Shown piece after piece: positions 8,586 to 10,301 of a stretch of DNA of 64,000 nt. This DNA is from Calditrichota bacterium (lineage in GTDB: Bacteria > CLD3), in assembly GCA_008501735.1 (NCBI GenBank), contig QQUF01000044.1, positions 62,001 through 126,000 of the forward strand, given 5' to 3'. The first letter of the stretch is position 1, and the number at the start of each line of letters is the position of its first letter. Both the position numbers and the translations under genes were made by a program. The notes beneath the pieces were generated by a model, which saw only the letters and a program-made list of their open reading frames with translations, was not told where the DNA came from and did no database searches.

Positions 8586-9680
8586 ATGAACTACAACAAT
8601 TTTCACAAACAGCTCAGAAACAACGATATTGCAAAAAAAATTCTTACAAGAATTTCGGAATTCCAAGATGAAATTACAATTATGGAATTTTGTGGTGGAC
8701 ACACACACACGATTTTTAAATACGGAATTCGTGATGTTTTACCCAAAAATATAAAAATGCGTTCTGGTCCTGGTTGTCCTGTTTGTGTAACTTCTAACAA
8801 AGACCTTGCAAAAGCAGCTGTTCTTTTGGAAAATTCTGATGTAATTCTTACAACTTACGGCGATATGATGAAAGTTCCGGGCGAACTCGGAAGCCTTGAA
8901 AAATTAAAAGCCAATGGAAAAGACATTCGCATTGTTTACTCAACTCTTGACGCTCTCCAAATCGCAAAGAATAATCCTGACAAAAAAATAATATTCTTCG
9001 GAGTCGGTTTTGAAACAACTGCTCCTGCAACTGCTGCTTCTGTGGTTTTGGCAAAAGAGCAAAACATCAAAAATTACTTTGTTTCCTCAGTTCTGAAACT
9101 CACAATTCCTGTAACAAAAGCACTGCTAACTCTTGGCGAAGTGAATGTAAATGCAGTTCTCGGACCTGGTCACGTTAGTACAATTATTGGCTCAAAAGAT
9201 TGGGAGATTTTCCCGAATGACTTCAAAATCCCTTGTGTAATTTCGGGCTTTGAGCCAATTGACATTTTACAAAGTGTAAGTATGATTTTGAAACAAATTT
9301 CCGATGGTCGTTGTGAAGTTGAAAACGAATACAGTCGTGCAGTTTTGCCAAATGGAAATCCAAAGGCTTTAGAAATTCTTTTTGATGTTTTCGAACCTTC
9401 AAGTGCAGATTGGAGAGGATTCGGCGAAATCCCTGAAAGTGGAATGAAAATCACAGAAAAATATTCAGAATTTGATGCCGATGAAGTTTTTGCTCCAAAA
9501 GTAAATTTTGAGGAAAAGAAAACAGCTTGCCGCTGTGGTGAAGTTCTTCGCGGAATAATTGAACCTCAAGAATGCAAAATCTTTGGAAACCCTTGCACTC
9601 CAGAAAATCCTTTTGGACCTTGTATGGTTTCATCGGAAGGTTCTTGTGCTGCTTATTTTAATTTTAGAAAAATTGCGTGA
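8586..9680 (+). CDS. hypD: Hydrogenase formation protein HypD
   Basis: 'MEFCGGHTHTIFKYGIRDVLPKNIKMRSGPGCPVCVTS' and C-term 'CRCGEVLRGIIEPQECKIFGNPCTPENPFGPCMVSSEGSCAAYF'. Confidence 0.97.
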   Translation: MNYNNFHKQLRNNDIAKKILTRISEFQDEITIMEFCGGHTHTIFKYGIRDVLPKNIKMRSGPGCPVCVTSNKDLAKAAVLLENSDVILTTYGDMMKVPGELGSLEKLKANGKDIRIVYSTLDALQIAKNNPDKKIIFFGVGFETTAPATAASVVLAKEQNIKNYFVSSVLKLTIPVTKALLTLGEVNVNAVLGPGHVSTIIGSKDWEIFPNDFKIPCVISGFEPIDILQSVSMILKQISDGRCEVENEYSRAVLPNGNPKALEILFDVFEPSSADWRGFGEIPESGMKITEKYSEFDADEVFAPKVNFEEKKTACRCGEVLRGIIEPQECKIFGNPCTPENPFGPCMVSSEGSCAAYFNFRKIA

Positions 9681-9691
9681 TTTCAAGAATT

Positions 9692-9922
9692 TTATTCAAA
9701 TTCATTTCTTGGAATTCCTGATTGGCGAATGATTGACATTAAAGTTCCAATCTTTAATTCTTTATGGTTTGGAACAGGAACTGTAATAGTGCCTTCGATA
9801 GTTTTCTTTTGCATCACAATATGACTTCCTCTTCTCCTAACTTCCTCAAAGCCATTTTTTGCAAGTATTTTACAGGTGTCCTTTCCTGAAAGATTTCGAA
9901 ATTTACCCAACAGCAACCTCAA
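9692..9922 (-). CDS. hicA: HicA family mRNA interferase toxin
   Basis: 'LSGKDTCKILAKNGFEEVRRRGSHIVMQK...VPVPNHKELKIGTLMSIIRQSGI' with the conserved G-S-H motif. Confidence 0.93.
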   Translation of the reverse strand: MRLLLGKFRNLSGKDTCKILAKNGFEEVRRRGSHIVMQKKTIEGTITVPVPNHKELKIGTLMSIIRQSGIPRNEFE

Positions 9923-10124
9923 CTTGCGTTACATAAACTTCATTGTGAAATCGAGATTTAATTTCTTCTTGTGAAGCCATTTCAAAAAATAATTCTAATG
10001 CTTCTTTTAAATTTTCTCTCGCTTCACCAACTGTATCTCCTTGACTTGCGACATCAACTTCGGGACAAATCGCAACGTAACCATCACCTTCTTTTTCAAT
10101 AATCGCAGTAAGTTGTTTAAGCAT
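9903..10124 (-). CDS. hicB: HicB family antitoxin (short form without DNA-binding domain)
   Basis: 'LTAIIEKEGDGYVAICPEVDVASQGDTVGEARENLKEALELFFE'; overlaps hicA by 20 bp. Confidence 0.93.
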   Translation of the reverse strand: MLKQLTAIIEKEGDGYVAICPEVDVASQGDTVGEARENLKEALELFFEMASQEEIKSRFHNEVYVTQVEVAVG

Positions 10125-10231
10125 TTAGCTACCTTAAAAATAAATTGTTAAAATTTTTTAAAACCAAATTCAAGATAAATGAGTTTTTTGGAAAAAAGCT
10201 AAAAATTTAATTCAAAATTTTCGGGAATTCT

Positions 10232-10301
10232 TTTTGGACCTTGTATGGTTTCATCTGAAGGTTCTTGTGCGGCTTATTTTAATTTTCGGAAAGTTGTGTG
10301 A
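10232..10301 (+). pseudogene. Duplicated 3' end of hypD (FGPCMVSSEGSCAAYFNFRKVV*)
   Basis: 64/70 identical by eye to 9611-9680, constant 621-bp offset, no gaps, same reading frame and stop. Confidence 0.92.

What the first reader, a model, noticed from the sequence alone, without database searches (positions are those of the whole stretch)
9611..10301. hicBA sits between two copies of the hypD 3' end: a possible TA mini-island using a gene terminus
Seen: 9611-9680 (last 70 bp of intact hypD) and 10232-10301 are direct repeats at a constant 621-bp offset, 64/70 identical without gaps. Both encode FGPCMVSSEGSCAAYFNFRK(I/V)(A/V)-stop. Four of six mismatches (in three codons) are synonymous and the other two conservative, so the copies look like two diverged functional alleles rather than a replication slip. 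The only genes between them are hicB and hicA. Inference: an incoming segment carrying its own hypD 3' end plus hicBA replaced the resident terminus and displaced the old one downstream, as integrative elements do at gene 3' ends, but with no visible integrase. The HicB is short (73 aa) and lacks a recognisable DNA-binding domain.
Basis: partly seen in the sequence, partly recalled or inferred. Interest (0 to 1): 0.85.

Follow-up and report, generated by a model that had tools for sequence, protein, structure and literature searches.

The report
Toxin–antitoxin pair between duplicated gene ends
A small toxin–antitoxin gene pair (hicBA) sits between the intact end of a hydrogenase-assembly gene (hypD) and a second, decaying copy of that gene's end; pairs of the same family in unrelated bacteria also tend to sit between duplicated host sequence, which suggests the pair spreads by imprecise recombination rather than by an integrase.

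Summary
The duplication is real: 9605-9683 and 10226-10304 are 90% identical (E 1.6e-23), and the genome holds only these two copies. Copy 2 is longer than reported. It starts near 10208 (hypD codons ~KIFGN) and carries a frameshifting 17-nt deletion, so it is a broken hypD tail and not a neat attachment site. The nearest relative genome (same family, HypD 74%) has hypC-hypD-hypE with no hicBA and no second tail. The 73-aa HicB is a complete, widespread form, sporadic across unrelated families, so hicBA was horizontally acquired. Nine of 24 loci of this hicBA family have direct repeats spanning the module, against 55 of 985 control positions (p 6e-6; 8/21 without the window and non-independent loci, p 2e-5). 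In at least four of them besides the window the repeats are ends of different host genes (64-aa ORF, DUF218, Memo, a carbonic-anhydrase-like ORF). That argues against a hypD-specific integrase. It favours integrase-free import, in which one side recombines homologously in the neighbouring gene and the other joins illegitimately (HFIR, or 'insertion with long target duplication' as described for restriction–modification genes). The 'mini-island' and 'odd HicB' parts are not supported.

The parts
8586..9680 (+). hypD, intact, 364 aa (hydrogenase maturation protein HypD)
   Evidence: Pfam HypD 1.5e-146; NCBIfam TIGR00075 equivalog 1.8e-141
9570..9680 (+). copy 1 of the duplicated segment: 3' end of intact hypD, from codon GAA to the stop
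   Evidence: alignment to copy 2
9692..9922 (-). hicA, toxin; stop codon 12 nt after the hypD stop, tail to tail; TTG start, may begin at a later in-frame TTG
   Evidence: Pfam HicA_toxin 2.3e-20, above cut-off; weak matches to solved HicA chains
9903..10124 (-). hicB, 73-aa antitoxin, overlapping the hicA start
   Evidence: weak Pfam UPF0150 match, below cut-off; 7497 homologues with E <= 1e-10, most of the 120 listed exactly 73 aa and 79-90% identical
10125..10207 (.). hicB upstream region; its border with copy 2 near 10207/10208 is the non-homologous joint
   Evidence: homology of copy 2 to hypD ends here
10208..10301 (+). copy 2: displaced, broken hypD 3' end with a 17-nt deletion relative to hypD
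   Evidence: 81/94 nt identical to hypD across the deletion; only two copies in the genome
10357..10911 (-). 184-aa ORF of unknown family, first gene beyond copy 2
   Evidence: no Pfam, NCBIfam or PADLOC match; not found in the other 8 genomes of the phylum held

Best explanation
Copy 2 is the leftover 3' end of a hypD that once occupied this place. The hicBA pair was acquired horizontally together with the hypD 3' end now attached to it. DNA carrying hypD(3')-hicBA from a related lineage most likely recombined homologously within hypD on the left. Its other end, beyond hicB, was joined illegitimately into the resident hypD about 110 bp before its stop. The intact gene is therefore hypD with an imported end, and the resident end was pushed downstream, where it has since lost 17 bp and gained amino-acid changes. 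This is homology-facilitated illegitimate recombination, with the outcome known as insertion with long target duplication. No integrase is needed. The same family of hicBA did this at different genes in other bacteria. Shown: the duplication, its decay, the absence of both from the nearest relative, the mobility of hicBA, and the excess of flanking duplications at related loci. Inferred: the donor, the direction of replacement, and the two recombination steps.
For: Only two copies, collinear and diverged. hypD pair dN/dS 0.13; a duplicate decaying neutrally from birth is disfavoured (p 0.02 on 87 nt, 0.11 on 66 nt). Nearest relative: hypD followed directly by hypE, no hicBA, one tail. HicB family patchy, 24 of 393 genomes, from many families, and 79-90% identical across unrelated taxa. 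9 of 24 hicBA loci have spanning direct repeats against 55 of 985 controls; repeats at gene ends: 64-aa ORF 3' end 154 bp 88% in G041, DUF218 gene 5' end 51 bp 82% in G095, Memo gene 3' end 35 bp 91% in G047, carbonic-anhydrase-like 3' end 115 bp 85% in G050. In G050 the same pair of flanks occurs once with and once without hicBA. One-sided import leaving displaced gene ends is a published model for other loci (PMC5361080; PMC2884548).
Against: No close relative with an empty hypD site could be read; G001 is only 74% identical in HypD and has hypE next to hypD, so other rearrangements happened too (hypE lies 84 kb away here). All polarisable amino-acid changes are on copy 2, which a simple target duplication with later decay would also give. 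In G041 and G095 the repeat pairs show no clear constraint (p 0.2-0.5 against neutral decay). The joint sequence cannot be compared with donor or resident DNA.
Confidence: 0.5

Rival explanations
1. Insertion with long target duplication in the strict sense: hicBA inserted at the end of hypD and the target (about 110 bp) was copied at that moment, as proposed for restriction-modification genes; the two tails were identical at birth and copy 2 then decayed while copy 1 stayed under selection.
For: Long variable duplications flank other loci of the family; all non-synonymous changes and the deletion are on copy 2; the G041 and G095 pairs fit neutral decay of one copy; precedent for R-M genes (PMC3874152; PMC3031569).
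Against: Synonymous divergence of the hypD pair is too high for its few amino-acid changes (8 synonymous, 4 non-synonymous; p 0.02 on 87 nt, but 0.11 on the 66-nt tail alone); the aroB-end pair beside the G041 locus shows the same (p 0.04).
Confidence: 0.27
2. Copy 2 is what is left of a second, tandem hypD (or hypCD) paralogue that was deleted, and hicBA merely lay between the two paralogues.
For: The repeat is a true hypD fragment that was once coding, and the hyp operon has been broken up in this genome (hypE 84 kb away).
Against: Only one hypD in the genome; the nearest relative has one; no tandem second tail in 393 genomes; it does not explain why related hicBA pairs have duplicated ends of other genes.
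Confidence: 0.15
3. Remnant of a site-specific integrative element (IME or CIME type) that used the hypD 3' end as attachment site and carried its own end of the gene.
For: Shape: intact gene end, cargo, displaced gene end.
Against: No integrase or other element gene between the copies; no viral contig with the hypD end pattern; no other hypD end used this way among 393 genomes; relatives of the cargo sit at unrelated genes.
Confidence: 0.05

Closest known systems
Insertion with long target duplication (Nobusato et al. 2000; restriction-modification genes; read here through PMC3874152 and PMC3031569)
   Same: An addiction-type gene pair flanked by long direct copies of host sequence of variable length (order of 100 bp), with no transposase or integrase.
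   Different: The cargo is a toxin-antitoxin pair; the copies are diverged (82-92% at the gene-end loci) and the hypD pair looks more like two alleles than a fresh copy; no occupied/empty strain pair was available.
Homology-facilitated illegitimate recombination with displacement of gene ends (model for T6SS effector-immunity arrays, PMC5361080; Rhs C-terminal displacement cited there; variable segments, PMC2884548)
   Same: Imported DNA anchored by homology on one side and joined without homology on the other, leaving the old gene end downstream.
   Different: The displaced end here is a non-functional scrap of a housekeeping maturation gene, and the cargo is hicBA.
Integron gene cassettes carrying hicBA
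   Same: One locus of this HicB family (G199, L116) lies in an array with repeated attC-like sites.
   Different: No attC-like site at the window locus; its repeat is hypD coding sequence.
CIME/IME elements at gene 3' ends
   Same: Displaced gene end downstream of the cargo.
   Different: No recombinase, no fixed target gene, ragged left boundary.

Membership tests
HicAB type II toxin-antitoxin systems | HicA-family toxin (PF07927) next to a HicB-type antitoxin | tested here: met
   HicA_toxin 72.9 bits, cut-off 27; adjacent overlapping 73-aa HicB with thousands of homologues named HicB by sources
HicAB type II toxin-antitoxin systems | toxicity of HicA and neutralisation by HicB | not testable with these tools
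   needs expression experiments
Insertion with long target duplication | cargo flanked by long direct copies of one host sequence | tested here: met
Insertion with long target duplication | relatives without the cargo have a single, uninterrupted copy of the target | tested here: inconclusive
   G001 has one hypD end and no hicBA, but is distant and has hypE next to hypD
Insertion with long target duplication | copies identical at birth | tested here: inconclusive
   hypD pair: excess of synonymous differences, p 0.02 or 0.11 by region; other pairs compatible with neutral decay
Homology-facilitated illegitimate recombination | homologous anchor on one side, non-homologous or microhomology joint on the other | tested here: inconclusive
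Site-specific integrative elements (IME/ICE/CIME) | integrase gene in the element | tested here: not met
   only hicB and hicA between the copies
Site-specific integrative elements (IME/ICE/CIME) | same target site used repeatedly | tested here: not met
   no other hypD end in 393 genomes has a tandem second copy; related hicBA lie at other genes
Dispersed repeat family | further copies in the genome | tested here: not met

The most novel reading that the evidence does not exclude
This hicBA family is an integrase-free mobile addiction module: it repeatedly enters genomes at the ends of arbitrary genes, leaving long duplicated gene ends as a footprint, and the addiction itself selects for retention of these otherwise rare illegitimate insertions.
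Probability: 0.22. Interest if true: 0.7.

Novelty: new member of a known kind. Interest (0 to 1): 0.47.

Why it matters
How two-gene toxin-antitoxin pairs move between genomes without any mobile element is an open question. Flanking duplicated gene ends are a readable footprint of such moves. Here they recur at about a third of the loci of one hicBA family in unrelated genomes, so the mode of entry can be tested with strain comparisons and transformation experiments. It would extend what was described for restriction-modification genes to a toxin-antitoxin pair.

Tried and rejected
Dispersed-repeat explanation: rejected, two copies only. Phage, plasmid or viral carriage: no HicB match in the phage or plasmid collections at the limits used, none in viral contigs, and no hypD-end pattern in viral contigs. 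Looking for the same footprint at the four other hicA loci of this genome: none convincing; L057 has a 27/32 AT-rich repeat, E 2e-4. Close relatives through genome contigs gave only 45-47% HypD homologues. The 91% HypD relative (P0002) has no retrievable DNA. Searching from centres G041 and G093 added one new locus, without a repeat. Chance extension of copy 2 by plain local alignment was not significant in an unanchored shuffle test (178/1000); it became so only when anchored next to the tail (51/20,000) and by its codon pattern. Random-position controls were first done with 900-bp flanks and then redone with 4-kb spans in the same genomes. PDB and NCBIfam were uninformative for HicB.

Full report
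Observation. The window encodes hypC (8360-8581), hypD (8586-9680), then on the minus strand hicA (9692-9922) and hicB (9903-10124), then a 184-aa ORF (10357-10911). The last 70 bp of hypD recur at 10232-10301 with 64/70 identity; BLASTN joins 9605-9683 and 10226-10304 at 89.9%, E 1.6e-23. The whole genome (4.14 Mb, 59 contigs) has no third copy.

Extent of copy 2. TAATTCAAAATTTTCGGGAATTCT (from 10208) matches hypD GAATGCAAAATCTTTGGAAACCCT (from 9570) with four synonymous changes in KIFGN. A 17-nt deletion in copy 2 lies between this piece and the tail and shifts the frame. Across the deletion 81/94 nt agree, and an extension as good was found in 51 of 20,000 random placements. An unanchored shuffle test was not significant (178/1000), so the extension rests on its position and codon pattern. 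The copy is a broken hypD end with a ragged left border, not a clean attachment site.

Divergence. Over 87 coding nt there are 8 synonymous and 4 non-synonymous differences (dN/dS about 0.13); over the 66-nt tail alone 4 and 2. If one copy had been free of selection since birth, about two thirds should be non-synonymous; p is 0.02 for 87 nt and 0.11 for 66 nt. The four non-synonymous changes all lie on copy 2 when G001 is the outgroup, and the 91% relative P0002 agrees with copy 1 at the residues that can be compared. So copy 2 is the decaying one, and part of the divergence probably predates its death. The synonymous sites cannot be polarised reliably because G001 is distant.

Relatives. G001, the only other genome of the family held, has hypC-hypD-hypE, one hypD end and no hicBA here; its genome has no HicB of this family at E 1e-5. 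In the window's genome hypE lies 84 kb away (C46:155764), so the operon has also been rearranged. No other hypD end has a tandem second copy in a pattern search of 393 genomes; the one other genome with two matches has them on different contigs. Downstream sequence of about 60 hypD loci shows no duplicated tail. No viral contig matches.

The cargo. HicA is clear. HicB matches UPF0150 only weakly, but has 7,497 homologues at E <= 1e-10, most of the listed ones exactly 73 aa and 79-90% identical, with names from several phyla. It is thus complete. In 393 genomes the family is patchy, 24 positives from many families. Both facts point to horizontal movement.

Recurrence. Looking at other loci of this HicB family, direct repeats span the module in 9 of 24, against 55 of 985 positions in the same or similar genomes (p 6e-6). 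Leaving out the window, the second copy in G095 and one of two orthologous loci, it is 8 of 21 (p 2e-5); leaving out also the integron, palindromic and paralogue cases, 5 of 21 (p 0.006). The repeats differ in kind. G041: 3' end of a 64-aa ORF, 154 bp, 88%, intact gene on the hicA side as in the window. G095: 5' end of a DUF218 gene, 51 bp, 82%; a second hicB unit in that genome also has a DUF218 fragment on the hicB side. G047: 3' end of a Memo-family gene, 35 bp, 91%. G050: the 3' end of a carbonic-anhydrase-like ORF (named by eye; no Pfam match) 115 bp, 85%, and the start of the next gene, 67 bp, 88%; the same pair of flanks occurs once with hicBA between them and once without. G190: a 193-bp repeat around a nucleotidyltransferase, hicB and a SIR2-like gene. 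G199: attC-like sites of an integron array. G392: a palindromic 51-bp repeat. G079: ORF6N paralogues and a 27-bp exact repeat. Fifteen loci show nothing. Next to the G041 locus a metallo-beta-lactamase-fold gene is flanked by two ends of aroB, so the footprint is not confined to hicBA.

Mechanism. Different target genes, no recombinase, ragged borders and diverged copies fit an import anchored by homology in the neighbouring gene and closed illegitimately on the other side. This was proposed for V. cholerae effector-immunity arrays (PMC5361080) and for variable segments in species comparisons (PMC2884548). The outcome equals 'insertion with long target duplication', reported for restriction-modification genes with duplications of the order of 100 bp (PMC3874152; PMC3031569; Nobusato et al. 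2000 itself was not read). Whether the hypD end next to hicA came with hicBA, or was copied at insertion, is undecided; I lean to import. A lost tandem hypD is possible but leaves the recurrence unexplained. A hypD-specific integrative element is unlikely.

Novelty. The mechanism class is known; its recurrence at a toxin-antitoxin family was not found in the papers searched, which cover open-licence papers only. I therefore file it as a new member of a known kind, of moderate interest, with a testable stronger reading.

Noticed in passing
L115 (G041:C5) 5750-5833 and 6710-6793: A metallo-beta-lactamase-fold gene next to hicBA is flanked by two copies of the 3' end of aroB (84 bp, 86%, dN/dS about 0.13), the same footprint with a different cargo.
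   Followed up: partly
L122 (G050:C110) 192-770 and 2943-3619: The flanks of hicBA (carbonic-anhydrase-like 3' end and start of the next gene) occur twice in the same contig, once with and once without hicBA between them.
   Followed up: partly
L116 (G199:C124) 1-4700: hicBA of the same family lies in an array of repeated attC-like sites, apparently an integron cassette array.
   Followed up: partly
L123 (G190:C165) 1050-4159: A 193-bp direct repeat (88%) encloses a nucleotidyltransferase, a hicB without detectable hicA, and a SIR2-like protein, a possible small defence cluster.
   Followed up: no
L057 (G000:C24, hicA at 297763) 1356-1387 and 2010-2041: Another hicAB locus of the window's genome has a 27/32 AT-rich direct repeat on both sides; may be chance.
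   Followed up: no
G000:C46:155764-156663 (outside the window): hypE lies 84 kb from hypCD on the same contig, whereas in the nearest relative hypC-hypD-hypE are contiguous.
   Followed up: no
window 34319-36760 and 18555-19352: Long imperfect direct repeats (67-74%); those at 18555-19352 lie inside one large ORF (16533-19535, minus). Probably internal protein repeats.
   Followed up: no
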